A DNA stretch of 48,089 nucleotides from NCBI GenBank assembly GCA_944388805.1, contig CALXKE010000001.1, positions 1 to 48,089 of the forward strand, given 5' to 3'. Within the stretch, counting starts at the first letter, position 1; each line of letters begins with the position of its first letter. A program made the position numbers and the translations under genes. Below the pieces are notes generated by a model. That model saw only the letters and a list, made by a program, of their open reading frames with translations, made no database searches and had not been told where the DNA came from. Origin of the DNA: an uncultured Clostridia bacterium. Its GTDB lineage: Bacteria; Bacillota; Clostridia; TANB77; CAG-508. This document shows, in pieces, positions 425 through 16,394 of this stretch.

Positions 425-1069
425 ATGAAAAAATTATTAAGAATTTTAGTATTAATAATGTTAATTATAACCTTATTCCAAATAGCAAATATGTATGCTC
501 TATATACAGACCAATTGCAAGGAGAATATACAAATTTGTTAGGTGTTTGGTCAATTAAAGTAAATGAAACAGACATATCTTCAGGAGATGAAAATTTGAC
601 TTTTAACATGACAGAAGACAATCTTATATATTTGGATTCTGAGCATGTTAAAAGCCAAACAATGGCACCAGGAACACAGGCATATTTTGAAATTGTGATT
701 GATCCAACCAATACAGATGTATCTGTTTTATACACGCTAAATATAAAATTAGATGCAGTCACAACTGCAAAATTAAAGTTGGTAAATGTGGAAAATTATT
801 TTCAAAAACCTGGAGAGACAGAACAACTTACAAATGATGATGTATACACAAACAACGAAACCAATGTGCATGAGGCCATTATTCCTCTTGCGAGAATAAA
901 TGATAAATATATAAATCATGTCAGATTATATTTTGAATGGGAAAATATAGAAGAAAATAATGCTTCTGATTCAGAATTAGGTCAAACAGAAGATGCAAAG
1001 ATATCAATACCATTAGAAATTAATTTAAAACAATATACAGGAGAAGTGATAGGCAATGAAAGCGGATAA
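425..1069 (+). CDS. TasA/camelysin-like secreted protein
   Basis: 214 residues. An N-terminal signal or anchor segment (about residues 4-22) is followed by a Tyr-Ala-Leu-Tyr stretch and a beta-rich ectodomain. The ectodomain carries a PGTQAYFEI motif near residue 82, typical of the TasA/CalY (camelysin) group, where a conserved Pro-Gly precedes a strand. These proteins are exported by Sec, processed by SipW-type signal peptidases and often assemble into extracellular fibres. Here the gene directly follows the preceding stop codon and overlaps the SipW-type peptidase gene at 1056 by 14 bp. The family is inferred from signal architecture, motif and neighbour; the role as a fibre subunit or minor component is inferred. 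Confidence 0.7.
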   Translation: MKKLLRILVLIMLIITLFQIANMYALYTDQLQGEYTNLLGVWSIKVNETDISSGDENLTFNMTEDNLIYLDSEHVKSQTMAPGTQAYFEIVIDPTNTDVSVLYTLNIKLDAVTTAKLKLVNVENYFQKPGETEQLTNDDVYTNNETNVHEAIIPLARINDKYINHVRLYFEWENIEENNASDSELGQTEDAKISIPLEINLKQYTGEVIGNESG

Positions 1070-1580
1070 AATATTAAAAATTATTAAAAAAGTAATCGTG
1101 AATCTAATAATTTTGGTATTAAGTATCATTGCTATTCTTGTCATATGGGGATTTATACAATTAAATGTACAAAATAAAGAATATATAGACATATTTGGAT
1201 ATTCCATACTTAGTACAGAAACTGGAAGTATGTCACCAACCATAGAGAGAGGTGATATTATAATCATTAAAATAGGTGATGAAATAAAGGAAAATGATAT
1301 TATAACATACAAACAGGATAATGTACTCATTACACATAGAATAGAACAAATAGATGGTGATACCATTATTACAAAAGGAGATTATAATAATGTTCAAGAT
1401 GAGCCGATAGAAAAAAATCAAGTGATAGGTAAAGCTGTGTACATTATTAATCATGTAGAGGTTTGGAAACAGGTATTTACAGATATGCATGTTATTATAC
1501 CACTAGTGATAACAATTATATTATTTATCGTGATGATAGCATATAAAGAAAAAATAGGTGAGAAAAAAGATGTTGGATAA
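1056..1580 (+). CDS. sipW: SipW-type signal peptidase I (S26B)
   Basis: 174 residues. A TM segment (about 12-33) is followed by the catalytic core with the nucleophile in TGSMSP (Ser58) and the basic residue as histidine in ITHR (His94). A Lys-Gly-Asp motif lies near 107-109. A Ser-His pair instead of Ser-Lys marks the ER/archaeal SipW branch, known to process TasA and related proteins. A second hydrophobic segment lies at about 145-165. It overlaps the upstream TasA-like gene by 14 bp and the downstream one by 11 bp, as expected for a translationally coupled peptidase and substrate set. It is the first of four such peptidases in the locus. Confidence 0.88.
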   Translation: MKADKILKIIKKVIVNLIILVLSIIAILVIWGFIQLNVQNKEYIDIFGYSILSTETGSMSPTIERGDIIIIKIGDEIKENDIITYKQDNVLITHRIEQIDGDTIITKGDYNNVQDEPIEKNQVIGKAVYIINHVEVWKQVFTDMHVIIPLVITIILFIVMIAYKEKIGEKKDVG

Positions 1581-2142
1581 GAAAAAGTTGAAAAAAAGTA
1601 TCATCATACTTTTTTTAATAGCAATTATCATAATCGCTATTATTTTTATAAGAAATACATTATCAAGATATGAAACAGTGGCGACATCAGAAAAAGATGT
1701 AGATGTTGCTTTTTGGATGCTTCATGATGATTTTCAGTCAGCAAATATCATTATAGAAGATATTTATCCATCAAATAATTCATTTGATTATTCTTTTTCT
1801 GTATCAAATTTTGAAGCAGAGGAAGATGGAACAATAAACAGAAGAGCAGAAACAGATTTGGAATATGAATTAACAGTAACAACAACAACCAACTTACCAC
1901 TAGAATATGTGATAGAAAAAAACGGTGAGATTTTAAGTACAGAACAAAATATAACGACCGATGAAGATGGAACCTATTACAGAGAAATCTTAATAGAACC
2001 TTCACAAATGGTACAAGGAGAAGACTTAACAGATAATTATGTGATTAAAGTAACATTTCCAAAAGAAAATGATACAAATGCAGAATATTCAGATTTGATT
2101 GAATATATCAAGTTAGATATAAATGCTAGACAAATCATTTAA
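1570..2142 (+). CDS. TasA/camelysin-like membrane-anchored protein
   Basis: 190 residues from the ATG at 1570. I prefer it to the GTG at 1558 because AGGTGAG at 1556-1562 is well spaced for the ATG and itself contains the GTG. A Lys-rich N-terminus leads into one long hydrophobic segment (about 10-29), then LSRYETVATSEKDVDVAFW, a typical start of a TasA-like ectodomain. The rest is beta-rich with acidic residues and no catalytic motif. It overlaps sipW by 11 bp. It is probably a SipW substrate and surface or fibre component; this is inferred from context and signal architecture. Confidence 0.65.
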   Translation: MLDKKKLKKSIIILFLIAIIIIAIIFIRNTLSRYETVATSEKDVDVAFWMLHDDFQSANIIIEDIYPSNNSFDYSFSVSNFEAEEDGTINRRAETDLEYELTVTTTTNLPLEYVIEKNGEILSTEQNITTDEDGTYYREILIEPSQMVQGEDLTDNYVIKVTFPKENDTNAEYSDLIEYIKLDINARQII

Positions 2143-2147
2143 GGCAA

Positions 2148-2189
2148 ATGTCGCATAGACAAACGAACTCAATGCGACACAGGAGGTAA
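2148..2189 (+). repeat. TGTCGCAT hairpin repeat, copy a (mini-ORF MSHRQTNSMRHRR)
   Basis: Inverted repeat with 8-bp arms TGTCGCAT and ATGCGACA around a 15-16 nt loop containing ACAAACGAACTC. Read from the ATG at 2148 it encodes a 13-residue peptide. Its last codons are the AGGAGG ribosome binding site of the next gene, and its TAA (2187-2189) lies 2 nt before that gene's ATG at 2192. Several related copies occur through the window. Confidence 0.85.
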
Positions 2190-2191
2190 AA

Positions 2192-3238
2192 ATGAATAAC
2201 TTAATGGATACATATATAACATTTACAGAAAAGAAAATAAAGAAATACATGAAAACATTATTAGCAAAACAATATGACGAAAATTTAGTGAATGAATATT
2301 TAAAAACATATATTAATGCCAGATATTATAATATTCAGAATGCAGAAAAGCCTGCAAGAGCATTTTATCTAAGAATATTAGATGAATTAGAATATAAAGA
2401 AGATATTTTAATGAAAAAATGTGAAGAAGAAGCGCAAAGCTTGGATGAAAAGCAAAATACATTAAATACGATTCACAATTTAAAAGAATTATTTGCTTAT
2501 ATTTTATTTTTTGATAATGTTAGAAATGTAGAAAATTTTAAGACAATTGACAATATAAAAGAGATTGTCAGTAAAATGGTACAAACAGCAAATGCATTAT
2601 TTCAGACAGAGATTTCACAAAGTGCAGAAAAAAAATTGTATGAAGAAATCAAAAATGATATGCTTGAAAAAGAAATATTTTTGGACAAATTTGATACAGA
2701 TGAATTTTCATTACAATTTGAAAATAGCAAATTTAAAGATGACATCTATTTTGCCACATTAGAGCAAAAAGTGAAAATGCCGATGCAATATAGTGAATCT
2801 GCCATAGAAAAGGTATATCATGAGGGAATTGTGGCAGAGGATAAATTACAAGTAGAATATATACTATTAAGTGTTGTCGTTATTTCAGATATTGTCAATG
2901 GAAATTTTAATGACAAATATATTGCAGAATTTACAAGTACATTATTTAAAAAGAAACAAAAATTAGATAGTATTTTATCTATTCTTGGAAATCAAGCATT
3001 ACAGGATAAAATCAGTTTAAATATCATGTATGCGGATTATATAAAAAATCAGAAAAGTGTATTAGAATATACAAAAAAAGGTTACAATTTCACCATTACA
3101 TTAGATAATGAAGCCAAAAGTATAGAAGATGTGGAACAATTAAAAATGTTTAAAATGGTTATTGTACCTCAAAAATTGTTGTTATACAAAGAAATAAAAA
3201 GCAATAAAGAACTATTTGATAATGTGATATTGAAATAA
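2192..3238 (+). CDS. Unknown helical protein in the SipW/AAA locus
   Basis: 348 residues, Lys/Glu/Asn-rich and apparently all-helical, with no signal peptide or TM segment, so probably cytoplasmic. The ATG has an AGGAGG at 2181-2186. I recognise no catalytic motif. It lies directly upstream of the membrane-tethered McrB-like AAA+ ATPase (3354). Together with the proteins at 5069 and 7915 it forms a set of cytoplasmic helical proteins interleaved with secreted proteins, so it may be an adaptor or scaffold of the ATPase. That role is inference from position only. Confidence 0.6.
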   Translation: MNNLMDTYITFTEKKIKKYMKTLLAKQYDENLVNEYLKTYINARYYNIQNAEKPARAFYLRILDELEYKEDILMKKCEEEAQSLDEKQNTLNTIHNLKELFAYILFFDNVRNVENFKTIDNIKEIVSKMVQTANALFQTEISQSAEKKLYEEIKNDMLEKEIFLDKFDTDEFSLQFENSKFKDDIYFATLEQKVKMPMQYSESAIEKVYHEGIVAEDKLQVEYILLSVVVISDIVNGNFNDKYIAEFTSTLFKKKQKLDSILSILGNQALQDKISLNIMYADYIKNQKSVLEYTKKGYNFTITLDNEAKSIEDVEQLKMFKMVIVPQKLLLYKEIKSNKELFDNVILK

Positions 3239-3334: not shown

Positions 3335-3353
3335 AAAAACAGGAGAAATAAAC

Positions 3354-4907
3354 ATGGAAACATATGGAAGATTTTTATTTGAATTTTTAAGTCAATTTTT
3401 TTCTGGATTTGGAGACATATTAGGTGGTCTTTGGAATGGGATTGTAAATATATTTAATATACCAAGATATTGGAGCATTATCCAAAACTATGCCAATGAT
3501 TTTAAAGTGTCAGAATGGTTTTTAACAGGATTAGCCATTATTTGTATGCTTATCGTTATTGGCGGAATCATTGGAGTCTTAATCTTTTTCTTGAAAAGAC
3601 ATATGAAATGGAGAAAAAAGATTGTGGATCAAGAAGAATTATTAAAACAAATTGATACCTTGAATGGACAAGTAGAAGAACTAGTAGATGAAAAATTAAA
3701 ATTGTTAAATATGAAGTCACCAGAATTAGGTGTTAATCCAAACGGTATCAGTACAGGTATGGACAAAGCTGCACTTGCTGCTGCACAATCAGAAGCAAAT
3801 AATGAAGAACAAATTGATCCAAATAGCCAAAGCAGATTCTCTAAATTAACAATGATCGATGAAGATTTTGCAAAATATAAACAAAAAGATTATCACAATA
3901 GCTTTACTTTACCAGAGTTTTGCTATATGTTTAGAAATTTTGCTGCAAGTAAATTAAAATTATATTATAGTGAAAAAATGATAAGATTATTTGTATCAGC
4001 GATTGCATCAACCAAATTGGTTATCTTACAAGGTATTTCTGGTACAGGTAAAACATCTATATCTCTTGCATGGGGTAACTTTGTAAAACATCCATCATGT
4101 GTTGCATCTGTACAACCATCATGGAGAGATAGAACAGATATATTTGGATACTTAAATGAGTTCACCAAGAAATTTAATGAAACAGACTTCTTAGCATATT
4201 TATATGAAGCAGGATATACAGATGAAATCTATACAGTTATCCTTGACGAGATGAACTTAGCGCGTGTGGAATATTATTTTGCAGAAATGTTATCCATCCT
4301 AGAAATGCACAGTACAAAAGATTGGAAAATCGAAATAGTACAAAGTTCATGGCCAACAGATCCAAAGAAATTAATCAAAGGAAAATTGCAAATTCCACCT
4401 AATGCATGGTATATCGGAACCATCAACAATGACGACTCAACATTCATGGTAACAGATAAGGTATATGATAGAGCAATGCCTATTGATATTAACGAAAAAG
4501 GTGTTGCATTTGAAGCAGATGATGTTGACGCTCTTGATGTAAACTATTCATACTTAAATGGCTTATTTGATAAAGCGATGATAGATTATGCTATATCACC
4601 AGCAACATTAAAAAAGATAGAAGACATGGACAACTATACAATCAAACACTTCAGAGTTGCATTTGGTAACCGTATTGTAAAACACATGAAAAAATTCGTA
4701 CCAGTATATGTTGCTTGTGGAGGAGACGAAACAGAAGCCGTAGACTATTTCATGGCCAAAAAAGTATTAAGAAAATTTGAAGGATTAAACTTAACATTAA
4801 TTAGAGACGAAATAGATGGTTATATTGATTTCTTAGACAAAAACTTTGGAAAAGGCAAAATGAGCGAATGTATAGAATTCTTACTAAGACTTAAAAAGAT
4901 GTCTTAA
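3354..4907 (+). CDS. Membrane-tethered McrB-like AAA+ ATPase
   Basis: 517 residues; RBS AGGAG just upstream. The N-terminal part is hydrophobic and amphipathic, with one clear TM helix at about 56-80, then a short coiled coil (about 90-120) and a low-complexity linker. The AAA+ module shows Walker A GISGTGKTS (227-235), Walker B VILDEMNLA (295-303) followed by RVEYYFAEMLS, sensor-1 GTINND (355-360), and an Arg in YDRAMPID (373) as candidate arginine finger. The DEMNLARVEYYF signature is that of McrB-type ATPases of type IV restriction systems, but those are GTPases without a TM anchor. No endonuclease McrC is next to it. A DUF2357-like partner follows at 5069. The substrate is unknown; assembly or remodelling at the membrane in a SipW/TasA-type locus is inference. 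Confidence 0.85.
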   Translation: METYGRFLFEFLSQFFSGFGDILGGLWNGIVNIFNIPRYWSIIQNYANDFKVSEWFLTGLAIICMLIVIGGIIGVLIFFLKRHMKWRKKIVDQEELLKQIDTLNGQVEELVDEKLKLLNMKSPELGVNPNGISTGMDKAALAAAQSEANNEEQIDPNSQSRFSKLTMIDEDFAKYKQKDYHNSFTLPEFCYMFRNFAASKLKLYYSEKMIRLFVSAIASTKLVILQGISGTGKTSISLAWGNFVKHPSCVASVQPSWRDRTDIFGYLNEFTKKFNETDFLAYLYEAGYTDEIYTVILDEMNLARVEYYFAEMLSILEMHSTKDWKIEIVQSSWPTDPKKLIKGKLQIPPNAWYIGTINNDDSTFMVTDKVYDRAMPIDINEKGVAFEADDVDALDVNYSYLNGLFDKAMIDYAISPATLKKIEDMDNYTIKHFRVAFGNRIVKHMKKFVPVYVACGGDETEAVDYFMAKKVLRKFEGLNLTLIRDEIDGYIDFLDKNFGKGKMSECIEFLLRLKKMS

Positions 4908-4922
4908 TGGATATGCCCAGTT

Positions 4923-5068: not shown

Positions 5069-6190
5069 ATGGACTTAAATATTGTAAAGTTAGCAAATAT
5101 GGAAAAGGAAAAGTCAACCAAATTTCTTAGTAAAATTGATTCAAAGTTAATGATGGATGTAGATAGAAGTCACCTGGTTGAGAATGATGAATGGATTGAT
5201 ATGGTTTTATTTACCATTCCATATTTAGAAAAAGCACTGACAAAAGAAATTAAAAATATTGTAACAGAAGAAGAGATTATCAAGATAGAGTTAATTAAAA
5301 AAGTAACTGTTGAAAGTGTAAAACATTTATCAAAACATGTAAATCTTGTGGATAAATTTAATCAAAAAAGTGGTGAAGTAACACCTAAAAAGATTTTAAA
5401 TTCCTATAAAGAAGAAACTTTTCTTACTTATGAAAATCGATTTTTGTATACTTTGATAAAATTGATTGAAGATTATATGTATTTAAGAAAAAAAGCGGCT
5501 AATGAGGAATATAAAGGTAAAAATCATCAGAAAGCAAACTACGAAGCAGAGGTTAAATTAAATAGAGAAAAAATTAATGTGAATTTGGAATACCATTCTG
5601 AAAGAACAACAGAAATCACTAAGTCAGAAAAAACTTCGGAAAAAATAGCAGAGATAGAACAATCTATAAAAATGTTAAAACAAACTGAGGTTTATCAAAC
5701 GTTAGTTGCTAAAAAAGCCACTTATGTAAAAGCACCATTAAAAATGACAAATGTTTTGTTGAAAAATGTCAATTTTCAATATGCTGTAAAATTATGGAAC
5801 TATTTAAGTGATCAAATGGAATTAAATGATAAAACCATAAATGAAAGTAGTGAGTACGAGGAAAAAGGTATTGTAAAAGAATTAGTAGATGAAGATATAT
5901 TTTTACTATATTCTATTTTGAAGAAAACAGATAATGGAAATACATTACAAGGAAAAGCTAAATCAGCAATTGAAGACAAGAAGATGGCAAAACAACTAAC
6001 AGATGCTATGATAGAAAGGATTATAGAATTAAATCCTGAAATGACAGAAAAAGAGCTAAATAAATTGATTTCAGAGAAAATTTTAGTAATGAAAACGAAA
6101 AAATTAATTTCTTTAAAACCAATAGAAGATCGATTTAAGGATCGAATTGAAAAATATATGATACAAGCAAAAGAAATGAGGTTAAAATAA
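5069..6190 (+). CDS. DUF2357-like helical protein, partner of the McrB-like ATPase
   Basis: 373 residues, RBS AAGGAGG. The motif LTYENRFLYTLIKLIEDYM (about 131-149) and the later PLKMTNVLLKNVNFQYAVKLW (starting near 225, two overlapping parts) match the helical part of DUF2357, a family found next to McrB-like ATPases. Family members often carry a C-terminal PD-(D/E)XK nuclease; here the C-terminus is Lys/Glu-rich and I see no such motif, so this looks like a nuclease-free version. The gene follows the AAA+ gene after a palindromic repeat and touches the sipW-type gene at 6191 (TAA then ATG). The family call is by motif recall, not a search. Confidence 0.55.
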   Translation: MDLNIVKLANMEKEKSTKFLSKIDSKLMMDVDRSHLVENDEWIDMVLFTIPYLEKALTKEIKNIVTEEEIIKIELIKKVTVESVKHLSKHVNLVDKFNQKSGEVTPKKILNSYKEETFLTYENRFLYTLIKLIEDYMYLRKKAANEEYKGKNHQKANYEAEVKLNREKINVNLEYHSERTTEITKSEKTSEKIAEIEQSIKMLKQTEVYQTLVAKKATYVKAPLKMTNVLLKNVNFQYAVKLWNYLSDQMELNDKTINESSEYEEKGIVKELVDEDIFLLYSILKKTDNGNTLQGKAKSAIEDKKMAKQLTDAMIERIIELNPEMTEKELNKLISEKILVMKTKKLISLKPIEDRFKDRIEKYMIQAKEMRLK

Positions 6191-6928
6191 ATGGATAGCA
6201 AGAAAGACGAAAGAGAAGAAAATAGTACCCAAAATAGTCAAAAAAAAGCAAGCACAACAAAAACAGCTGAAACAAAAGCTGGAAAAAAGGCAACGAAAGC
6301 AAATGAACCAAAAGTGGAAAAGAAAATAGAGGAAAATACTGAAAAAGTAGAAAGAAACATTGGAAAAAATGTGGGGACAAGAGTTGCCAGCAAACCTCTT
6401 AGAATCATTTGGAATATATTTGTTAAAATTTTAACACTTATTATCATATTTATTTCTATTGTCATCGTTGTACAAAAAGTAACGAATAACCAAGAATCAT
6501 TTTTTGGATTTAGGATATTTAGAGTACAAACAGGAAGTATGATTCCGAAATATCAAATTGGTGATGTTATACTAGTAAGAGAAGTAGATTCAAATCAAAT
6601 TCAAATTGGTGATGATGTAACATATGAAGGCGAAACAGGCTCAATGAACGGATTGATTGTTACTCACAGGGTTATTGATATTGAAGAAGTCGATGGTGAG
6701 AAAGTTTTTCATACAAAAGGTATAGCCAATAATTTAGAGGATCCTGTTGTAAGTGCAGATCAAATAAATGGTGTTGTTCAAACCAAAATGTATATTTTAT
6801 CACTGATTTGTATGTTATTAAATAATAAATATGTTTTCTATTTCTGCGGAATATTGCCATTAACAATATATGTCGCTTTTAGAATTTTTAAAGGAAAAAA
6901 AGTGAAGAAAATTGAAAGGGAAAATTAA
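6191..6928 (+). CDS. sipW: SipW-type signal peptidase with Lys-rich N-terminal extension
   Basis: 245 residues. The first ~68 residues are Lys/Glu/Thr/Ala-rich and cytoplasmic, an unusual addition for SipW. TM segment at about 73-95, then the catalytic serine in QTGSMIP (Ser116) and histidine in VTHR (His159), and FHTKG near 173. A second TM segment (about 200-230) leads to a basic end. Ser-His usage places it in the SipW/S26B branch. It starts right after the stop of the DUF2357-like gene and overlaps the next TasA-like gene through TAATG at 6926-6930. Confidence 0.87.
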   Translation: MDSKKDEREENSTQNSQKKASTTKTAETKAGKKATKANEPKVEKKIEENTEKVERNIGKNVGTRVASKPLRIIWNIFVKILTLIIIFISIVIVVQKVTNNQESFFGFRIFRVQTGSMIPKYQIGDVILVREVDSNQIQIGDDVTYEGETGSMNGLIVTHRVIDIEEVDGEKVFHTKGIANNLEDPVVSADQINGVVQTKMYILSLICMLLNNKYVFYFCGILPLTIYVAFRIFKGKKVKKIEREN

Positions 6929-7644
6929 TGAAAGAAAAAAATAAGATTAGATTTATAGAAATACTATGTATCATTTCTTTAATCATCACCATTTTTTCAA
7001 TACAAAGGACATATGCGAGATATTTTGAACAGGTAGATACAACATATAACACCAATATAAAAAGATGGTTAATTAGAGTAAATGATATGATTGTACATGA
7101 TGCAGAAACGCTTAATGAAGTTATGGAACCCATCTTTACAGAAAATGAAAATATAAATGAAAATATTTTAGTACCTGGACAAACTGGATATTTTGAAATG
7201 TTGATAGATTATACAAATGTAGATTTGGCATTTGAATATGAATTTTCCATAGAACAATTAAATGAAACACCACTAGAAGATTTTGAGATTTATGGATATG
7301 AGGTCATTGATGGAGAGGATCATACAATTACAGAAACATCAGAAATAAAAGGTGTGATTGATCCAACAACAGAAGTAAATAGTGCAGGCGAAAAGAAACG
7401 AGAGATTAGAATCTTATTTAGATGGAATGATGGAGAAGGAAGCATCATGGATAATAAAGCAGATACACAATTTAGAGGAGAAGAAAATAATACAACAGAT
7501 GAGAACAATACAACAGGTCAAGACAATACGACAGATCAAGATGAAAGTAATACTTCTGAAAATGATTTACATACAGTATTAAGATATCAGGCAACAATGA
7601 AGTTTACGCAATATATCCCTCCAGAAGAGGAAACAACAACATAA
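6928..7644 (+). CDS. TasA/camelysin-like secreted protein with Asn/Thr/Asp-rich insert
   Basis: 238 residues. The signal or anchor segment (about 10-26) is followed by TYARYFEQ, a typical TasA-like junction, and a beta-rich domain with a PGQTGYFEM motif near 80. Residues about 185-213 are a low-complexity Asn-Thr-Asp-Gln repeat. It is coupled to the upstream sipW by TAATG overlap and is a probable substrate of that peptidase. It resembles the protein at 425 in layout and motif, so the two probably arose by duplication. Confidence 0.68.
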   Translation: MKEKNKIRFIEILCIISLIITIFSIQRTYARYFEQVDTTYNTNIKRWLIRVNDMIVHDAETLNEVMEPIFTENENINENILVPGQTGYFEMLIDYTNVDLAFEYEFSIEQLNETPLEDFEIYGYEVIDGEDHTITETSEIKGVIDPTTEVNSAGEKKREIRILFRWNDGEGSIMDNKADTQFRGEENNTTDENNTTGQDNTTDQDESNTSENDLHTVLRYQATMKFTQYIPPEEETTT

Positions 7645-7780: not shown

Positions 7781-7918
7781 GTGGAATTAAAAAATGTGAA
7801 AACATCGAATTTGGAAAATGATGAATTACTAGATATCCAAAAACAAGTAGAAAGCTTTTTAAAGTTTTTAAATGGTGAATATGACACTGTTAAAAAGTTA
7901 GAGGAGGAAAATTCGTGA
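7781..7918 (+). CDS. Small 45-residue protein upstream of the coiled-coil gene
   Basis: GTG start at 7781 with GAGGTGAG at 7770-7776 as ribosome binding site; TGA at 7916-7918. The product is a 45-residue, charged, probably helical peptide (Glu/Lys/Leu/Asn-rich). Its stop overlaps the GTG of the next gene by 4 bp (GTGA at 7915), and its last codons hold that gene's GAGGAGG. Start signal, overlap and composition make it a likely real gene, perhaps an accessory to the 542-residue coiled-coil protein. No family is recognised. It is similar in size to exonuclease VII small subunits, but I see no supporting motif. Confidence 0.6.
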   Translation: MELKNVKTSNLENDELLDIQKQVESFLKFLNGEYDTVKKLEEENS

Positions 7919-9543: not shown

Positions 9544-9618
9544 TGTCACATAGACTTCGTTTGTCAATGAGACATGTCGCATAGACAAACGAACTCAATG
9601 AGACACAAAAGAAAATAA
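9543..9618 (+). repeat. Two TGTCGCAT repeats, the first with inverted loop
   Basis: Copy c1 (from 9543) has the loop in the opposite orientation (CTTCGTTTGTC), as if the element had flipped. Copy c2 (from 9574) is the usual form and reads MSHRQTNSMRHKRK. The c2 stop TAA (9616-9618) overlaps the ATG of the next signal peptidase gene by one base (TAATG), and that gene has no other evident ribosome binding site. Confidence 0.8.
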
Positions 9619-10238
9619 TGGAGCTGAGAACAAAATTGGAATATGATGTTAAAAAAATTTCTCATAAAATAAAAAATAAAAAAAGAACAAAAAAAATAAT
9701 AAAGTTTGTTATATTGATTAGTTTAATCATTCTTTTTATAGTAAATGTAATTTTATCATTAGAAGAAAAAAAACATATTTTTGGAATCTATATGTTTAAT
9801 ATTGTTTCTGAAAGTATGGAGCCAACATTTTATAAAGATGATTTAGCAATTGTCAAAAGTTGCAATTTAGAAGAACTAAAAAAGGGGGATATTATCACTT
9901 TTAAACAAGAAGATAGAATCATTTCACATAGAATATCAGAAATTACAAACGAAAAGGGAGAACGAACCATTATTACCAAAGGTGATAATAATGAAGTAGA
10001 AGATTTGGAACCAGTAAATACACAAAATATATATGGTAAGGTAGTATTTATTGTTCCTAAAATAGGGAAATTTGTAAATTACATACAAACGATAAGCGGA
10101 TTTGTGAATGTATGTATTTTGATAGTGATTATATGGATTCTAGTAAGTTTTAGAGAAAATGTGATAAACAATAGAAAAATCAAAAGAAAAAAATATGAAA
10201 TAAAAAAATTGAGAGATAATTATAAGATAGAGGGTTAA
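9618..10238 (+). CDS. sipW: SipW-type signal peptidase I
   Basis: 206 residues. Lys-rich N-terminus, TM segment about 28-47, catalytic serine in VSESMEP (Ser66), histidine in ISHR (His104), KGDNN near 121-125, second TM segment about 150-170 and a basic end. It belongs to the Ser-His SipW branch, with SESM instead of the usual TGSM. No Shine-Dalgarno is visible at its ATG. The stop of a repeat-encoded mini-ORF overlaps the start, so coupling by termination and reinitiation is plausible. It is followed 3 bp later by another SipW-type gene. Confidence 0.86.
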   Translation: MELRTKLEYDVKKISHKIKNKKRTKKIIKFVILISLIILFIVNVILSLEEKKHIFGIYMFNIVSESMEPTFYKDDLAIVKSCNLEELKKGDIITFKQEDRIISHRISEITNEKGERTIITKGDNNEVEDLEPVNTQNIYGKVVFIVPKIGKFVNYIQTISGFVNVCILIVIIWILVSFRENVINNRKIKRKKYEIKKLRDNYKIEG

Positions 10239-10241
10239 ACT

Positions 10242-11129
10242 ATGAAGAATGATAATAGACAAAAAAGCAATGCAAAGAAAATAATAAAAATTGTATTCAT
10301 AATTTTATATCAACTACTTGTCATAATGGCTTTAATCTTAACAATGGTAATTGTTTTACAAAGAGTAACCAATAGTAATGGCTCAATAGGTGGATATAAA
10401 ATATTTAGAGTTATTACTGGAAGTATGGAGCCTGAATATGAAGTTGGAGAAGTAGTTATCAGTAAGGAAATAGATCCTAAGGATATTGAAGTAGGAGATG
10501 ACATTGTATACTTAGGTAAAACTGGCGAATATGCTGGCAAAATTATCATGCATAATGTTGTAGGGATTGATACAAATCAAGATGGAAGATTGACTTTCCA
10601 TGCAAAAGGTTTACAAAGTAATAGTGTTGAAGATCCTCAAATTAGTGAGGAACAAATATATGGTGTTGTAAAGTACAGGGCTCATATTTTGACAATATTG
10701 TATAATTTGGCAACAAATATATATTCCATATTTTTTATCATTATCATTTTAGTATTAAATGTATTTATAGCCTTTAATACACCTAAAAAATCAAAAAAAT
10801 CTAAAAAACGTAAAGTAAAACAAATTGCTAATAATAGTGATGCATTTGATAATGTATCAGATGAAGATTTTGAAGAAGTAGTAGAGGAAGATATAGAAGA
10901 AACAGAAGATGAATTTGACGAAGAGGCAGATGATGAGGAAGAAACGTATGATGTTGCTGAGAGTGAAGAGGATATAGAAGAGAAAATTGAAAAGAATCAA
11001 GATGAGGACATCGAAAAGAAAGCACATGAAAAAATCATAAATGAAAAAATGCGAGAATATTATAACAAAACAATAAATCATACAAAAAATAATGCACAAG
11101 AGAAAAAGGGGAGAAATAAAAACAAATGA
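10242..11129 (+). CDS. sipW: SipW-type signal peptidase with long acidic C-terminal tail
   Basis: 295 residues. TM segment about 15-39, catalytic serine in ITGSMEP (Ser61), histidine in IMHNV (His104; the usual THR context is altered), FHAKG near 119-123, second TM segment about 145-170. After the membrane comes a cytoplasmic tail of ~120 residues: first Lys-rich, then Asp/Glu-rich, then Lys/Glu coil. Such a tail is not part of the normal enzyme and echoes the charged tails at 2-424 and 6191. It lies tandem to the sipW at 9618. The substrate is likely one of the TasA-like proteins downstream. Confidence 0.85.
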   Translation: MKNDNRQKSNAKKIIKIVFIILYQLLVIMALILTMVIVLQRVTNSNGSIGGYKIFRVITGSMEPEYEVGEVVISKEIDPKDIEVGDDIVYLGKTGEYAGKIIMHNVVGIDTNQDGRLTFHAKGLQSNSVEDPQISEEQIYGVVKYRAHILTILYNLATNIYSIFFIIIILVLNVFIAFNTPKKSKKSKKRKVKQIANNSDAFDNVSDEDFEEVVEEDIEETEDEFDEEADDEEETYDVAESEEDIEEKIEKNQDEDIEKKAHEKIINEKMREYYNKTINHTKNNAQEKKGRNKNK

Positions 11130-11144: not shown

Positions 11145-11843
11145 ATGAATATATTACGTGAATTTAGACGAATAAAAAAGCGAAGTATGCCAGTTAGAAT
11201 TTTACTAATTTTGATATTTTCTGTAATATTAATAATAAATACCTATGCCTGGTTTAATGCAAATGAACCAGTTAATATGAGTGGATTAGAAGCAGATGTA
11301 ACACCTTGGGATGTTCGATACTATGTGGATGATAAAGAAGTGCTAGATGAGAGTGTTACATTTACAATAGATGAATTGTATCCAGGTATGCCTGATAGAG
11401 AAGACACTGTACGAATTTATAATATGGGTGCAACAAGTACTAGCATAACTTATGAATTAACCTCTGTAAAAATATTTGGTCAAGACATGTTAGACCAATT
11501 GAAGGAGAATGGCATTATTCAAACAGAAGGAAATACTACACATATATTTGCAGATGACACGAAATATCCTTTTGATATAAGCTATACTTACGATAAAACG
11601 AGATTAGATGGAGAATATGTAGATGATGAAACGACACCAAATGCTGGAGCAACCTTTCAGTTTCATGCTAGTTGGGAGTATCAAGGAAATGGAACAGACG
11701 AGGAAATTCTTGCCAGAGATATTTTAGATACTATGTTTGGACAAAATGCTTATGAGTATTATCAAAATGAAGAAAATGATTCTTCAAAAGCAATAGAAAT
11801 TACTGTAAAGATAACCAGCTCAATGATAAGGCCAAATACATAA
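11145..11843 (+). CDS. TasA-like secreted protein (TYAWF-type signal)
   Basis: 232 residues, RBS GGAGG. A basic N-terminus, hydrophobic segment about 17-34, then NTYAWFNANEPV. The TYAWF junction is typical of SipW-processed TasA-like proteins in clostridia. The ectodomain is beta-rich with a YPGMPDREDTV motif near 81 resembling the Pro-Gly strand motif of the family. No enzymatic motif. The gene ends the first gene group; a nested palindrome and a strong promoter follow before the next gene. Confidence 0.65.
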   Translation: MNILREFRRIKKRSMPVRILLILIFSVILIINTYAWFNANEPVNMSGLEADVTPWDVRYYVDDKEVLDESVTFTIDELYPGMPDREDTVRIYNMGATSTSITYELTSVKIFGQDMLDQLKENGIIQTEGNTTHIFADDTKYPFDISYTYDKTRLDGEYVDDETTPNAGATFQFHASWEYQGNGTDEEILARDILDTMFGQNAYEYYQNEENDSSKAIEITVKITSSMIRPNT

Positions 11844-12117: not shown

Positions 12118-12146
12118 TTGACAAAAAATAGAAGTCTGAGTATAAT
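12118..12146 (+). promoter_or_regulatory. Strong sigma-A promoter for the 12195 gene group
   Basis: Consensus -35 TTGACA (12118-12123), 17-nt spacer, consensus -10 TATAAT (12141-12146), about 49 bp before the ATG at 12195. It suggests that the membrane protein at 12195, and perhaps the major TasA-like gene at 13095, are transcribed separately from the upstream genes. Confidence 0.75.
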
Positions 12147-12194
12147 TTTTATAGAAAATGTAGAAAAACATATTTTGAAAAGCTAGGTGAGATT

Positions 12195-12995
12195 ATGGCA
12201 AATGAAGAAACAACAAATACGCAATTACAAGATGCACCAACACTGGAAGAGCAAATTGATGAAGCGACACTTGGTGAAAAATTAGAAAAAAAGGCAAAAA
12301 AGGAAAAACGAAAAAATAAAAGACGTATTGCTTTTGAAATATTTTTAGTACTTATTGTATTACTGTTAATTAATGTGTACATTGTATTATCCATATTTTA
12401 TAAAGGAGAAAATTTCACCGTCACACTAGATAGTGAATATGGAAGAGAAAGTGGATTAGTTATCTACGAAGATCCTGAAAACAAATATACTAGAACCTTT
12501 TTAAGATCAAAAGACATAGAATTTTTTACAGATATTTCTATAAATTGGTTGCCAGAAGATATAGATAATGAAGGAAATGGCTCACATAATGGTAGAAATT
12601 ACATAGCATATACATTTTATGCAGAAAATATGGGACAAGACACTATAAATTATTGGACAACCATAAAAATAGATGATGTTGTAAGAAATGTAGATGAAGC
12701 AATTAGAGTTATGGTATTTAAAAATGGCGAAAGAGTAGTTTATGCAAAAAATAATAGAGAAACAGGAGAACCAGAACCTGAGACAACACCTTTTAAAGAT
12801 GAAGACACTGTTATGTTAGATTTAACAGAAAATTTCGAAGTAGGCGATATAGACAAATGGACTGTTGTTGTCTGGGTAGAGGGAGATGATCCTGAATGCT
12901 TAGATGATTTAATCGGTGGAGAAATCAAAATGCATATGACACTTACAGAGGAACATATTTTACAAGAAGATGAAACTCCACAAGATGAAAGATAG
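12195..12995 (+). CDS. Single-pass membrane protein with TasA-like ectodomain
   Basis: 266 residues. A cytoplasmic, Glu/Lys-rich N-terminus (about 1-50) is followed by one TM segment (about 52-72) and a beta-rich extracellular domain. It lacks the TYAWF junction of its neighbours, so it may remain anchored rather than be released by SipW. No catalytic motif is recognised. It has its own strong promoter and lies 100 bp before the large TasA-like gene. A role as membrane anchor or assembly factor for the fibre would fit but is inference. Confidence 0.6.
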   Translation: MANEETTNTQLQDAPTLEEQIDEATLGEKLEKKAKKEKRKNKRRIAFEIFLVLIVLLLINVYIVLSIFYKGENFTVTLDSEYGRESGLVIYEDPENKYTRTFLRSKDIEFFTDISINWLPEDIDNEGNGSHNGRNYIAYTFYAENMGQDTINYWTTIKIDDVVRNVDEAIRVMVFKNGERVVYAKNNRETGEPEPETTPFKDEDTVMLDLTENFEVGDIDKWTVVVWVEGDDPECLDDLIGGEIKMHMTLTEEHILQEDETPQDER

Positions 12996-13002
12996 TCATA
13001 TC

Positions 13003-13057: not shown

Positions 13058-13094
13058 TATATAATTTAATTTAAAGAAAGAAAGGGAGTAAAAA

Positions 13095-14375
13095 ATGAGA
13101 GAAGAAAACATTCAAAGAAACTCAAGAAAAAGATTAAATGCTTTAATTTTATTAGTAGCATTTACAGCAATCTTATTAATTGTATCAACTTATGCGTGGT
13201 TCTCTACGCAGAAAAACGTAACATTAGGTGGACTAGCAGGTAAAGTAAATGTAGCTGAAGGTCTACAAATTTCATTAGATGCTTTAAACTGGGCCAATGA
13301 AATTGATTTAACAAATGATGCAGAAGCATATTTTGCACAAACTAATACAGACTTAGGACTAGATGGAACTGCTGGAAAAGAAAAATTATCATTAAAAAAT
13401 CCTTGGAAAAAAGCAGCAGATTCTAGTTATGAAGCACGTAATAACTTAGTACCAAGTGAATTATTACCAGTTTCTACAACAGCACAAACAAATGAGGGAA
13501 TTGGATTAAATGATTTCAACATGTATAGAGGAGAAAATGAATCAGGAATTAAATTAACTGGAGTTGAAAAAGTAGCAGCTGAGAATGCATCAGGATATTA
13601 TGCAATTGACTTCTTCTTACAAAACTCTTCATCAGAAGAAGCAATGGAAGGAGATGGAGACTTACTTAGAATTGAGCCTGGTTCAGAAATCATATTAGAT
13701 ACAACATCAAAAGAATCAACAGGTTTACAAAATACTTTTAGAGTGGCTTTTGCTATATTTGATGATGACGGAGTTGAGGCAAATACATTAGTTAATAATA
13801 CACCAACTCAAGCTCAAATTTTAGCTTCAACTACAGGTGATGATCGTGAAATAACAGATGTTGCTATTTGGGAACCAAATGCAAGTGGTGCACAAGTTGG
13901 AGATAGCCCAGCAATAGAAACATATGCAGCACATGTTAATTACATATTACAAAACAATAATAAAGTAACATTTTCAGCAGCAGATAAAAGTGAATTTACA
14001 ATAGATTCATCAAATAAGTTCACAGCAGATAAAGCAATTCCTACATATGCTTTAACAGCTGCATCTGTTACAAAAGCAAATATAGATGATATATATAACT
14101 GGGATTCAGAAGCAACAACAAATGGATTAGTAAGACAATATACACTTCAAACACCAAATTCAGGAGTGGCAGATTCAACTCAATTAATTAGTGCTAAAGA
14201 TGCTACTAAAGCTCAATTTAAAATTGAACCAGGTAAATATGTGCATATGAGAATGTATGTATGGTTAGAAGGACAAGATGTTGACTGTATCAACTATGCT
14301 TCACTTGGAGGAAGCTTAACAATTGACGTTGGATTAAGCAAACCAGGTTCAGAAAACGATGAATTAGGTGGCTAA
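13095..14375 (+). CDS. TasA-like secreted protein, candidate major fibre subunit
   Basis: 426 residues, RBS AAGGGAG. Signal segment about 14-32 followed by STYAWFSTQKNVTLGGLAG, a classic TasA-type junction. The mature part is large, Ala/Thr/Asn/Ser-rich and low in Cys. The codon choice is more regular (many GCA, TTA, ACA), which together with its own RBS and terminator suggests high expression. Similar large TYAWF proteins in clostridia are annotated as secreted TasA-like or uncharacterised. I infer a structural surface or fibre subunit; no enzymatic motif is seen. Confidence 0.62.
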   Translation: MREENIQRNSRKRLNALILLVAFTAILLIVSTYAWFSTQKNVTLGGLAGKVNVAEGLQISLDALNWANEIDLTNDAEAYFAQTNTDLGLDGTAGKEKLSLKNPWKKAADSSYEARNNLVPSELLPVSTTAQTNEGIGLNDFNMYRGENESGIKLTGVEKVAAENASGYYAIDFFLQNSSSEEAMEGDGDLLRIEPGSEIILDTTSKESTGLQNTFRVAFAIFDDDGVEANTLVNNTPTQAQILASTTGDDREITDVAIWEPNASGAQVGDSPAIETYAAHVNYILQNNNKVTFSAADKSEFTIDSSNKFTADKAIPTYALTAASVTKANIDDIYNWDSEATTNGLVRQYTLQTPNSGVADSTQLISAKDATKAQFKIEPGKYVHMRMYVWLEGQDVDCINYASLGGSLTIDVGLSKPGSENDELGG

Positions 14376-14420
14376 TATCCAAAAATATGAAAATATAGAA
14401 TGAGATGATAAATATAATAA

Positions 14421-14470
14421 GAAGAACCATAATAATCAAGCGGATAGTTTGGTAATTATGGTTCTTTTTG
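14421..14470 (+). terminator. Rho-independent terminator after the 13095 gene
   Basis: Stem AGAACCATAAT (14423-14433) with ATTATGGTTCT (14455-14465), followed by TTTTT. The loop is about 21 nt. Confidence 0.8.
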
Positions 14471-14643
14471 TCCATTGGGAATGTTCATATATATACATAA
14501 GCTTTATATCAATATATCAAATTTTATCCAATAAAAAATCCACTATTATTTAGAACTGTAACCAAAAAGTCTTATAAAATTTCAAAAAATAGCAAGAAAG
14601 AGTTGAAGAAAAAAGAAAAATTTAGTAAAATAAAGGAGGAAAA

Positions 14644-14676
14644 ATGTCGCATTGACAAACGAACTCAATGCGACAC
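14644..14676 (+). repeat. TGTCGCAT hairpin repeat, copy d
   Basis: Perfect 8-bp arms. The usual frame is stopped at codon 4 (TGA), but a second ATG at 14668 opens a 16-codon frame. Its TGA (14716-14718) overlaps the ATG of the next gene (ATGA at 14715). Confidence 0.85.
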
Positions 14677-14714
14677 GACAGACACAAAAGAGAAAAGGAG
14701 GGTAAAAAATACAA

Positions 14715-16394
14715 ATGAGCAATATACTGCGTAAACATAGAAAATCAAACCAAAAGAATAAACTAAGAAAATCGTTATTATTGATTTTTACCCTTATATT
14801 GACAACTTTTGCATGGTTTGCATATACCAAAATATTAAATCCGAGTTTGGACATACATGTAGCAGCATGGGATATGGAGTATTATATAAATGGTGAAAAG
14901 AAGGAAAATCCGATTGGGATCGAGTTCCCAACATTATATCCTCAAATGGAAGACCAAGTGGTTACGGTTGACATTTTAAATAATGGAGAGGCATTAGTAG
15001 ACTTAAGCTATCATATACAGGAAATATCGATTGTTGGCGTCTCCTATGAATTGGTACAAGAGGGAGAACAACCTACAACTGAGAATTATATAATGATTGC
15101 AGAACCAGTATTAGAATCAGATCCAGAAACAGGAGAACTTATATCAAAAGGAATTATCATAAATGATCCTGAAAAATTTCCATTTACACTAGAAATTGAA
15201 CATTCTCTGCAGGTAGCAGCACTAGATGATGCCTATTTAAAGGTTACAGCAAAATGGCCGGGTGATAATGATGAATTAGACACAGAATGGGGATATATAG
15301 TAGGAAAATATTTTGAAGAAAACCCAGATGCTACAACAGCTATGGCAATCAATCTAAGTATAGATTCATATCAAGCAAATGACGAAATTATAGGTGGAAC
15401 AGGAAATCTACCAAATGGACCTGGTACTAGACCATATTTGCCAAGTTCTGATTTTACACAAGTAGAAGGAACAACATTAGATACAGGATTAATCATCCAA
15501 GATTCAGCTGGAAATGAATATGTTTGGGTAGAGGTACCAAAATTAGCAAGTGTATATCCAACAGCTGGTATTAGTATAACAGAGTTTACAGATGAAGAAT
15601 ATCAAAAAATTGAAAATGATTTACATACTTATGCTTCAACATATAGAAATGGAACTTCAGCAAGTGATACATATTATTCAGAAGACACAACAGGATTATC
15701 AAGTAGTGAATATACTGAGTTAAAGCAAAAAATGTTAAAGAGTGTATATCAACATGGAGGTTTCTATATATCAAGATATGAAGCAGGAACGAATGTAAGA
15801 AGAAATGGACATACATCTATTGCAGACTTAGTTCCAATGTCACAAGCAAATCAATATCCAATCAATTGGATAACCTGTAGTGAGGCGCAAGAATTGGCAA
15901 GTAAGGCAAGCACTAATGGATATTCAGGAAGTTTACTATTTGGTATTCAATGGGATTTAGTACAAAAATATATAGAATCAAAGGCAGTAAATCAAGGAAC
16001 AGCAATTGGAACCATTCAGTCACAATTAATCAATAATAGTTCATCTTGGGGAAATTATAGGACAAGTACATATAATATTGTAAATAGCAATGCACAATAT
16101 TCAACTAATAATGGTTCACAATGGTTACAAGCACCTTATAATAAAACTTCTGCAAGTTCTGTATTACTATCAACAGGAGCAAATAGTGATTTTGGAAAAC
16201 AAAGTATATTAGACTTAGCAGGAAATGTATGGGAATGGACTTTGGAAAATTCAAATGTAGATTCTCAACCATGTGTTATCAGAGGTGGATCTTACGAGAG
16301 TAGTGCTTCTTCTGAATTAACTGTAAATAGTAGAAGTAATAATACTACGACACAAACATATTGGAGTATTGGATTTAGAATGACGATATTCTAA
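14715..16394 (+). CDS. TasA-like secreted protein with C-terminal FGE/SUMF1-like domain
   Basis: 559 residues; GGAGG upstream at 14698-14702. Signal segment about 20-36 with TTFAWFAYT, then a TasA-like domain to about residue 225 containing PTLYPQMEDQVV. A Gly/Pro linker leads to a C-terminal domain with the hallmarks of the formylglycine-generating enzyme (SUMF1/EgtB) fold: GGFYISRYEAG near 350, PINWITCSEAQ near 380, DLAGNVWEWT near 497, RGGSY near 520, and terminal IGFRM. The two Cys that make FGE an oxidase are not apparent, so it is probably a binding or structural version of the fold. It is the last gene of the left locus and is followed by a terminator. Confidence 0.75.
   Translation: MSNILRKHRKSNQKNKLRKSLLLIFTLILTTFAWFAYTKILNPSLDIHVAAWDMEYYINGEKKENPIGIEFPTLYPQMEDQVVTVDILNNGEALVDLSYHIQEISIVGVSYELVQEGEQPTTENYIMIAEPVLESDPETGELISKGIIINDPEKFPFTLEIEHSLQVAALDDAYLKVTAKWPGDNDELDTEWGYIVGKYFEENPDATTAMAINLSIDSYQANDEIIGGTGNLPNGPGTRPYLPSSDFTQVEGTTLDTGLIIQDSAGNEYVWVEVPKLASVYPTAGISITEFTDEEYQKIENDLHTYASTYRNGTSASDTYYSEDTTGLSSSEYTELKQKMLKSVYQHGGFYISRYEAGTNVRRNGHTSIADLVPMSQANQYPINWITCSEAQELASKASTNGYSGSLLFGIQWDLVQKYIESKAVNQGTAIGTIQSQLINNSSSWGNYRTSTYNIVNSNAQYSTNNGSQWLQAPYNKTSASSVLLSTGANSDFGKQSILDLAGNVWEWTLENSNVDSQPCVIRGGSYESSASSELTVNSRSNNTTTQTYWSIGFRMTIF

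What the first reader, a model, noticed from the sequence alone, without database searches (positions are those of the whole stretch)
425..16394. Surface-protein locus with four SipW-type peptidases, seven TasA-like proteins and an McrB-like membrane AAA+ ATPase
Seen: four Ser-His signal peptidases, seven proteins that are TasA-like or have a single anchor and beta-rich ectodomain, a TM-anchored AAA+ with McrB-type Walker B, a DUF2357-like protein and three helical cytoplasmic proteins on one strand, with overlaps or short gaps. Known: SipW processes TasA/CalY; McrB and DUF2357 belong to restriction systems. Inference: the AAA+ module has been recruited to assembly, quality control or defence linked to a secreted fibre. 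I know of no described system with this combination.
Basis: partly seen in the sequence, partly recalled or inferred. Interest (0 to 1): 0.8.

Follow-up and report, generated by a model that had tools for sequence, protein, structure and literature searches.

The report
McrB-like ATPase in surface-fibre locus
A gut-type bacterium carries a conserved gene cluster in which a membrane-bound relative of a DNA-restriction motor, whose partner protein lacks the usual nuclease, sits among genes that export and probably assemble TasA-like surface fibres; the combination has a name in print (CoCoPALM) but its function is untested.

Summary
Window 425-16394 encodes four SipW-type proteins, seven single-anchor surface proteins, a membrane McrB-like AAA+ (3354-4907), a DUF2357/McrC-like partner without detectable nuclease (5069-6190) and two cytosolic helical proteins. 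ORF 38-424 is the tail of a fifth SipW-like protein; its body ends contig C67 of the same genome, downstream of a 10,210-residue giant surface protein. The combination is not undescribed: Bell et al. 2024 named such systems CoCoPALM, in one short passage, without function. The locus meets the stated features except FtsB homology, which was not detectable. Added here: among 50 well-flanked relatives, DUF2357 is the next gene in 50, SipW-like genes occur in 48 and TasA-like genes in 50. PD-(D/E)XK was not seen in 69 close partners but in 4 of 4 soluble-outgroup partners. One subunit's predicted fold best, though weakly, matches the TasA fibre. SipW-like proteins fall into Ser-His-Asp, Ser-His-without-Asp and pseudo-peptidase classes. 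Against a strict SipW link: six more distant loci with the membrane ATPase have no SipW gene in the 14-20 kb held. Best explanation: an NTP-driven membrane machine that assembles or regulates surface fibres, not a restriction system. No bench evidence exists.

The parts
1..424 (+). C-terminal part (last TM and acidic/Lys-Thr-rich tail; ATG ORF 38-424) of a fifth SipW-like protein (sip0); its body is at C67 1-529 (-)
   Evidence: exact 77-base overlap of contig ends; full-length homologue L008 17814-18713; His column reads Asn, third column a gap
425..1069 (+). TasA-like anchored protein (tas1), candidate SipW-type site NMYA|LY
   Evidence: same cluster as tas3 (122 members in 74 of 81 loci)
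1056..1580 (+). SipW-type signal peptidase A, Ser-His-Asp
   Evidence: TIGR02228 E 2.1e-19; columns SHD
1558..2142 (+). anchored beta-rich protein (tas2), weak TapA-like match; candidate site NTLS|RY
   Evidence: TIGR04087 TapA E 0.084, below cut-off; cluster in 58 of 81 loci
2192..3238 (+). cytosolic helical protein hel348, directly before the ATPase
   Evidence: directly before AAA in 48 of 50 loci; no recurrent Pfam family in 64 members
3354..4907 (+). membrane-anchored McrB-like AAA+ NTPase: about 60 N-terminal residues, TM about 62-80, coiled coil about 90-123, AAA domain; motif NNDD
5069..6190 (+). DUF2357 (McrC N-terminal-domain) protein, no PD-(D/E)XK nuclease detected
   Evidence: PF09823 E 1.4e-8 and no other family at E up to 1; homologues; model C-terminus helical
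6191..6928 (+). SipW-type protein B, Ser and His present, Asp column Ile
   Evidence: TIGR02228 E 1.6e-23; 73 of 75 first downstream homologues lack Asp there
6928..7644 (+). TasA-like anchored protein (tas3), candidate site RTYA|RY
7915..9543 (+). cytosolic helical protein coil542
   Evidence: cluster in 22 of 81 loci
9618..10238 (+). SipW-type signal peptidase C, Ser-His-Asp
   Evidence: TIGR02228 E 1.7e-32; SHD
10242..11129 (+). SipW-type protein D, Ser and His present, Asp column Leu, acidic tail
   Evidence: TIGR02228 E 9.9e-18; SHL
11145..11843 (+). TasA-like fibre-subunit candidate (tas4), candidate site NTYA|WF
   Evidence: AF2 model pLDDT 87; best PDB match 8aur TasA fibre, prob 0.90, E 8.8e-3
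12118..12146 (+). sigma-70-type promoter match, 12 of 12 (TTGACA-17-TATAAT), possible start of a second transcript
   Evidence: promoter-like matches overall (117) are near the shuffle mean (108.9)
12195..12995 (+). anchored protein anch266, strongly conserved
   Evidence: cluster in 40 of 81 loci; 21 invariant columns in 32 sequences
13095..14375 (+). TasA-like anchored protein (tas5), candidate site STYA|WF; weak SipW-cognate signal
   Evidence: TIGR04088 E 0.058, below cut-off
14715..16394 (+). TasA-like N-terminus (TTFA|WF) fused to a C-terminal FGE-sulfatase-like domain
   Evidence: PF03781 E 1.2e-5

Best explanation
This is a CoCoPALM-type locus that builds a protein fibre or coat on the cell surface. 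Shown by sequence: TasA-like subunits carry A/S|x-aromatic motifs at the end of their anchors; two canonical SipW-type enzymes (A, C) could cut them; SipW-like proteins with altered active sites stand beside them here and in most close relatives; and a membrane McrB-like NTPase is followed by a DUF2357 protein without detectable nuclease. Inferred mechanism: SipW cleavage frees a subunit N-terminus that serves as donor strand for the next subunit, as in TasA. The catalytically altered SipW-like proteins hold subunits at the membrane, as proposed for S. pyogenes SipA in sortase pili. The NTPase forms a hexamer on the cytosolic face, stimulated by the DUF2357 protein as McrB is by McrC, and passes its cycle through the TM to its outer N-terminus, so loading, gating or clearing the assembly site. 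A restriction-type module would thus have been turned to working a membrane assembly platform. Which step consumes NTP, and whether it is GTP or ATP, is not known.
For: Layout: in 50 of 80 close loci (those with 5 kb held on both sides) DUF2357 is next to the ATPase in 50, hel before it in 48, a SipW-like gene right after DUF2357 in 47, some TasA-like gene in 50. Motif NNDD in 83 of 83 group A, 9 of 9 B and 10 of 11 C rows (the other NTDD); group D rows read NMDD, NIDQ, NMDE, NMDE, NIDE. TM before Walker A in 82 of 83, 9 of 9 and 11 of 11 of A, B, C and 0 of 5 of D; more Lys/Arg on the C side in 101 of 102. Nuclease: PDDEXK_7 in 4 of 4 group D partners scanned (L141 below the curated cut-off), 0 of 6 group B/C partners scanned, not listed for 69 group A partners. 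tas4 fold: best PDB match the TasA fibre; its profile puts archaeal bundling protein AbpX first in the PDB, not significant, E 0.71. A/S/G-x-aromatic at the anchor end: 111/120, 72/77, 55/57, 46/47, 69/69 in five families against 66.1, 48.4, 30.2, 28.0, 35.5 from shuffled segments. Precedents: SipA PMC4049620 (abstract); TasA donor strand PMC9674648 (passages); TapA PMC10151520 (abstract and opening); aromatic P2' of TasA PMC10269814 (abstract).
Against: No expression, fibre or NTPase data. The TasA match is weak by global score (TM-score 0.29; no PDB match below E 1e-3), and only one of seven surface proteins was modelled. The DUF2357 model has pTM 0.56 and no convincing PDB match; McrC was not among the 50 rows shown. 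Two of 50 close loci have no detectable SipW-like gene, and six more distant loci (group C) have none in the 14-20 kb held. The cleavage-site control is lenient: anch266 relatives, whose motifs look unlike SipW sites, also score 37 of 39 against 17.8. hel and coil proteins have no known fold.
Confidence: 0.6

Rival explanations
1. Quality control or shut-off: the membrane NTPase does not build the fibre but extracts or unfolds stalled SipW substrates or stubs, or gates secretion, in the manner of MoxR-type or membrane-extracting AAA+ proteins.
For: Same gene linkage; outer N-terminus, TM and cytosolic AAA fit an extractor; anchored substrates of several families; five group C loci pair the module with large anchored proteins without SipW.
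Against: Weak: none of the recurrent clusters that were identified is a protease or chaperone, but clusters 13, 14 and 16 were not family-scanned. McrB relatives are stimulated by McrC-type stalks rather than by substrate adaptors (Bell et al. passages).
Confidence: 0.23
2. Defence: the module is a membrane-sited anti-phage system of the CoCoNuT kind, and surface proteins act as sensors or barriers.
For: McrB/McrC ancestry; PADLOC candidate-defence hit PDC-M26A; Bell et al. place CoCoPALM among CoCoNuT-like NxD systems.
Against: No nuclease seen in 69 partners, in hel of 64 loci or in the window locus; in CoCoNuTs a missing McrC nuclease always comes with another nuclease. No phage record (2 matched) or plasmid record (263 matched) covers 80% of the ATPase. 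Recurrent neighbours are peptidase-like and anchored proteins. Neighbour genes of other loci were not all scanned for nucleases.
Confidence: 0.1
3. Adjacent but functionally unrelated modules: a fibre operon and a resident McrB-like pair.
For: Group C shows that the pair can occur without SipW.
Against: In close relatives the pair lies inside the fibre genes, with hel before in 48, DUF2357 after in 50 and a SipW-like gene next in 47 of 50 loci.
Confidence: 0.03

Closest known systems
CoCoPALM systems (Bell et al. 2024, eLife, PMC11090510; sections 6 and 7 and search passages read)
   Same: NxD-motif McrB-like GTPase with TM and coiled coil; McrC homologue (DUF2357); association with signal-peptidase-family proteins proposed as pilus assembly factors
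   Different: The paper gives one short passage and defers the rest; its supplementary file could not be read here. The TasA-like subunits, SipW classes, pseudo-peptidase, nuclease absence in this clade and giant surface proteins come from our calls. FtsB homology was not detected, and the topology is inferred as N-out/C-in.
tapA-sipW-tasA operon of Bacillus subtilis (PMC9674648 passages; PMC10151520 abstract)
   Same: SipW-type peptidase beside TasA-like substrates; A/S|x-aromatic sites; best fold match of tas4 is the TasA fibre
   Different: Three-gene operon with one peptidase; here five SipW-like proteins, an NTPase/DUF2357 pair, cytosolic partners and a giant surface protein
McrBC Type IV restriction (E. 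coli McrB 6hz4)
   Same: AAA+ domain with LDEMN-type Walker B; DUF2357 partner
   Different: TM-anchored, NxD instead of NxxD, no recognised DNA-binding domain, no PD-(D/E)XK detected in the partner
S. pyogenes SipA (PMC4049620, abstract)
   Same: Signal-peptidase fold without catalytic residues, encoded with surface-fibre genes
   Different: SipA belongs to the Ser-Lys bacterial type and works in sortase pili; the proteins here are of the SipW (Ser-His) type. Sortases were not searched for in these loci.

Membership tests
CoCoPALM | McrB-like AAA+ with NxD (not NxxD) signature motif | tested here: met
   NNDD in 83 of 83 group A rows; outgroup D reads NMDD/NIDQ/NMDE/NIDE. In the alignment with E. 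coli McrB there is no gap, so NNDD alone could also be read as NxxD; the homologues favour NxD.
CoCoPALM | GTPase fused to a membrane and coiled-coil domain | tested here: met
   TM before Walker A in 82 of 83 A, 9 of 9 B, 11 of 11 C, 0 of 5 D; hydrophobic heptad positions 96, 100, 103, 107, 110, 117; 33 of 2000 shuffles reach the 3.5-residue signal
CoCoPALM | that domain is homologous to FtsB | tested here: inconclusive
   No FtsB/DivIC family among Pfam hits at E up to 1 for the window protein; inferred cytosolic coil, whereas FtsB has its coil outside (recalled)
CoCoPALM | association with signal-peptidase-family proteins | tested here: met
   Window; 48 of 50 well-flanked close loci; 9 of 9 group B and 0 of 6 group C loci
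CoCoPALM | McrC homologue (DUF2357), usually with coiled coil | tested here: met
   PF09823 in 69 of 69 group A members; long C-terminal helices in the model; coiled coil of this protein not scored
McrBC Type IV restriction | PD-(D/E)XK nuclease on McrC | tested here: not met
   Window protein: only DUF2357 at E up to 1. Group A: PDDEXK_7 not among the 25 of 36 families listed; the 11 unlisted are single-member hits of E 0.064 or weaker. No nearly invariant position after residue 243
McrBC Type IV restriction | DNA specificity domain on McrB | tested here: inconclusive
   N-terminal region is about 60 residues, a TM and a coil, without a Pfam domain; a DNA-binding function was not tested
CoCoNuT | when the McrC nuclease is missing, an associated HEPN or other nuclease gene | tested here: not met
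   No nuclease family for the window locus proteins or listed for hel in 64 loci; other neighbours in related loci not all scanned
TasA/camelysin (PF12389) | sequence match to the family model | tested here: not met
   Not among hits of the seven window proteins at E up to 1; 1 of 40 members of A9 at E 0.022
TasA/camelysin (PF12389) | TasA fibre fold | tested here: inconclusive
   Best PDB match 8aur, prob 0.90, but E 8.8e-3 and TM-score 0.29; one of seven proteins modelled
SipW-type signal peptidase | Ser-His-Asp catalytic residues (role of Asp recalled) | tested here: met
   Met for 1056-1580 and 9618-10238 only; 6191-6928 SHI, 10242-11129 SHL, sip0 SN-

The most novel reading that the evidence does not exclude
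A restriction-type McrB/McrC motor has lost its nuclease, moved into the membrane and become the energy source of a Gram-positive fibre-assembly machine: NTP hydrolysis in the cytosol drives donor-strand assembly of TasA-like subunits outside, with SipW-fold pseudo-peptidases acting as subunit holders. It would give TasA-type fibres a dedicated motor and would explain what CoCoPALM systems do.
Probability: 0.4. Interest if true: 0.85.

Novelty: new member of a known kind. Interest (0 to 1): 0.62.

Why it matters
CoCoPALM was named as a large, uncharacterised clade of the McrBC family. The anatomy here gives it a concrete, testable job at the cell surface rather than in restriction, in gut and rumen Bacillota. 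It also shows SipW-type proteins split into active, altered and inactive classes within one locus type, a parallel to SipA of sortase pili, and ties the module to surface proteins of thousands of residues.

Tried and rejected
Plain restriction or CoCoNuT membership was considered and set aside, because no nuclease was found. Phage or plasmid cargo: 2 phage records and 263 plasmid records matched, all under 60% identity and none covering 80% of the protein. Profile searches of DUF2357 (A2), anch266 (A8), tas1/3 (A10), tas2 (A11) and hel (A6) against solved structures gave nothing significant. Foldseek of the DUF2357 model gave no E below 1e-3; the top hits, TolC and actin-capping protein, were taken as helix-pair noise. 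hel against DUF2357, profile-profile: probability 0.52%, no relation shown. Two whole or partial giants and one part of a third gave no Pfam family. Promoter and terminator counts do not exceed shuffles. The careful tree did not finish; only the quick tree was used, with long branches in group D. Literature searches on SipW with McrB, DUF2357, TasA/SipW/AAA/Tenericutes, CoCoPALM, SipW with pseudo/signal peptidase/catalytic terms and TasA/archaeal bundling showed, in the listings seen, no paper on this locus type beyond Bell et al. and its preprint. That rests on an open-licence library without supplementary files; searches list 8 of 12 and 10 of 63 papers.

Rows dropped before counts: one search uses 50 of the 80 genome-contig loci (those with at least 5 kb held on both sides). 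leave out the 20 short genome-search loci and two duplicates (L008, L017). One search leaves out those and L016, L018. One search scanned 6 of the 15 group B/C partners and 4 of group D (the partner of L144 was not scanned). Alignments for modelling were thinned by similarity and length. One search gave motif counts over rows that include duplicates and one misaligned row, and showed only the commonest; one search replaces it.

Full report
What is in the window. The four peptidase-like proteins exceed the TIGR02228 cut-off. The protein at 5069-6190 carries DUF2357 (PF09823, E 1.4e-8). The ATPase at 3354-4907 has no convincing Pfam hit (best PhoH, E 0.11) but hits PADLOC PDC-M26A (E 1.1e-36) and, as a profile of five homologues, E. 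coli McrB in the PDB (E 1.6e-4). The window starts at base 1 of contig C1 of a 71-contig draft genome. ORF 38-424 is the tail of a fifth SipW-like protein: the end of contig C67 carries its body, the two contig ends share an exact 77-base overlap, and a full-length homologue of 299 residues lies in G034.

Upstream on C67. The order continues into a 145-residue anchored protein, a split homologue of the family called ext315 here, and a single open frame of 10,210 residues (C67 32776 to 2144, minus strand). DUF285 (PF03382) matches in the two parts scanned (8,257 of 10,210 residues; 2 and 11 stretches). The G034 homologue has 6,578 residues. In 44 of 81 other loci there are giants of a second kind, or pieces of them cut by stretch ends, 216 to 2,768 residues in the rows shown, many with YGG-type repeats or a shared GTY-type C-terminus; the C-terminal pieces of the window-type giant fall in the same cluster (L016, L017).

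Related loci. Their record titles name Clostridia, Bacilli, Erysipelotrichaceae, Tenericutes/Mollicutes and similar, and one Actinomycetes. Local iterated profiles mapped neighbours in 105 loci, some short or near-duplicate: DUF2357 in 102, SipW-like in 94, hel in 83, ext315 in 75, each of five overlapping TasA-like profiles in 71 to 84. Among the 50 of 80 loci with at least 5 kb on both sides: DUF2357 next gene 50, hel directly before 48, ext315 48, SipW-like 48, SipW-like right after DUF2357 47, any TasA-like 50, anch 30, coil 17; medians 3 SipW-like and 4 TasA-like genes. The commonest order is sip-T-sip-T-ext315-hel-AAA-DUF2357-sip-T-(T on the other strand)-anch-T-coil or giant.

Prevalence. 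In the first sample, full-length relatives (E below 1e-200) were found in 3 of 34 other genomes of the same genus (G026, G029, and G034 with two copies); 6 of 55 genomes matched at E 1e-3 in all, own included. In an even draw of the class, 45 of 391 genomes match at E 1e-3 and 21, own included, have a best E below 1e-90. In the phylum draw 58 of 398 match, but apart from the window's genome all are at 3.8e-34 or weaker, mostly aligned from about position 130 on.

Four groups. A: window-like loci. B (L125-L133, 9 loci): the SipW-like gene usually stands directly before the ATPase, and the DUF2357 partner is mostly longer; a SipW-like gene was detected in 9 of 9. C (L134-L139, 6 loci): five have AAA-DUF2357-AAA and nearby large anchored proteins, one (L139) has AAA-DUF2357 among metabolic genes; no SipW-like gene was detected in the 14-20 kb held. 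In L136, genes that look like rpoA and rplQ (recognised by eye) stand just before the pair. D (L140-L144, 5 loci): soluble McrB-like proteins. The quick tree of 106 AAA domains separates D from A+B+C (SH-aLRT 99) and A from the rest (99); B and C are not single clades on it, L139 falls among B rows on a long branch, and long branches in D make deeper order unsure.

Nuclease. PDDEXK_7 follows DUF2357 in 4 of 4 group D partners scanned (L141 below the curated cut-off) and in 0 of 6 group B/C partners scanned. In group A, DUF2357 is hit in 69 of 69; PDDEXK_7 is not among the 25 of 36 families listed, and by the list's order the other 11 are single-member hits of E 0.064 or weaker. Nearly invariant positions of the partner all lie at or before residue 243. 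The AlphaFold model (pLDDT 79.7, pTM 0.56) ends in long helices. Foldseek found no convincing match, and McrC is not among the 50 rows shown, so the McrC-like fold itself is not confirmed by structure.

The NTPase. After removing duplicates, the motif reads NNDD in 83 of 83 group A, 9 of 9 B and 10 of 11 C rows (one NTDD) and NMDD, NIDQ, NMDE (twice) and NIDE in D. This fits the NxD signature described by Bell et al.. A TM precedes Walker A in 82 of 83 A, 9 of 9 B, 11 of 11 C and 0 of 5 D, and the C side has more Lys/Arg in 101 of 102, so the AAA domain is inferred inside and an N-terminus of about 60 residues outside. After the TM, hydrophobic residues at 96, 100, 103, 107, 110 and 117 are present in nearly every group A row; 33 of 2000 shuffles reach the observed 3.5-residue periodicity.

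The surface proteins. No library model identifies them as TasA-like above cut-off. The model of 11145-11843 (pLDDT 87) has the cryo-EM TasA fibre 8aur as best PDB match (prob 0.90, E 8.8e-3, TM-score 0.29). The sequence profile of the same family puts the archaeal bundling protein AbpX first, at a non-significant E of 0.71. Two methods thus point the same way, weakly; the other six proteins were not modelled. A/S/G-x-aromatic motifs at the end of the anchor occur in 111 of 120 (tas1/3), 72 of 77 (tas4-like), 55 of 57 (tas2), 46 of 47 (tas5) and 69 of 69 (ext315), against 66.1, 48.4, 30.2, 28.0 and 35.5 from shuffled segments; the anch family (37 of 39 against 17.8) and the giants with an N-terminal TM (14 of 18 against 9.0) score too, so the motif alone is not specific. 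TasA itself has a Phe at P2' (PMC10269814, abstract).

Kinds of SipW-like protein. On one alignment, the first SipW-like protein downstream of the ATPase keeps Ser and His but lacks Asp at the third column in 73 of 75 (Ile 41, one of them with a gap at Ser; Val 15, Leu 10, Thr 6, Asn 1); the second downstream class is Ser-His-Asp in 7 of 7 and the third Ser-His-Leu in 4 of 4. A further cluster (61 proteins in 60 loci, typically the first upstream gene) keeps a Ser-[MLI]-x-Pro motif in only 6 of 61 and a His-[RKN] type motif in 13 of 61; it is best read as a pseudo-peptidase. For the upstream genes the joint alignment was poor (29 of 61 U1 rows read SHD), so the split there rests. The window genome's sip0 keeps Ser but has Asn for His. 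S. pyogenes SipA is the precedent for a signal-peptidase fold without catalytic residues that is essential for pilus assembly (PMC4049620, abstract).

How it probably works. Shown: gene content, order, conservation, motif states, absence of a detectable nuclease, predicted membrane anchoring. Inferred: SipW cleavage frees donor-strand N-termini (TasA precedent, PMC9674648 passages); a TapA-like starter, perhaps tas2 (weak match), initiates (PMC10151520 abstract); pseudo-peptidases hold subunits; the NTPase/DUF2357 pair powers or gates the platform. Group C suggests that the module's more constant partner is large anchored proteins, with SipW an accessory for one class of substrate; one group C locus (L139) shows neither.

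Comparison with the known. The locus meets the stated features of CoCoPALM (Bell et al. 2024, section 7) except that FtsB homology was not detectable, and is filed as a member of that named but functionally undescribed kind. It lacks the nuclease that defines McrBC restriction.

Noticed in passing
L176/L177 (G000 contig C67, 2144-32776, minus strand): A single open reading frame of 10,210 residues with an N-terminal anchor and DUF285 repeats lies upstream of the locus; the relative in G034 has 6,578 residues.
   Followed up: partly
L174 1186-2065 (C67); G034 at the L008/L014 border; L016 about 3.6-4.5 kb: The ext315 homologue is split by a frame break at the same site in three genomes; the downstream part stays open in the +1 frame and is constrained (dN/dS 0.079 and 0.105 against two relatives; upstream part 0.169 and 0.241). 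Programmed frameshifting is a candidate; re-initiation or shared decay is not excluded.
   Followed up: partly
L134-L138: AAA-DUF2357-AAA arrangement: two membrane ATPases around one partner, near large anchored proteins; L136 stands behind rpoA/rplQ-like genes.
   Followed up: partly
L175 (G000 contig C3, 2500-8500): The one TIGR02228 place of the genome outside this locus, with two TAG inside the matched stretch, beside anchored proteins and proteins with DUF285-like repeats.
   Followed up: no
L008 and L011 (G034); L018 and L048 (one bin, CAMLUB): Two different copies of the locus coexist in one genome; their ATPases are 96-97% and 58-60% identical to the window's.
   Followed up: no
window 22544-26799, minus strand: Three genes that look like a spore-germinant receptor operon (recognised by eye, not tested).
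   Followed up: no
window 34322-36481, minus strand: 719-residue protein without a convincing Pfam family.
   Followed up: no
L009, L010, L011, L020, L021 and others: A gene of about 300 residues or longer on the other strand (reg305 profile, 16 of 105 loci) often lies just before the first SipW-like gene; not family-scanned.
   Followed up: no
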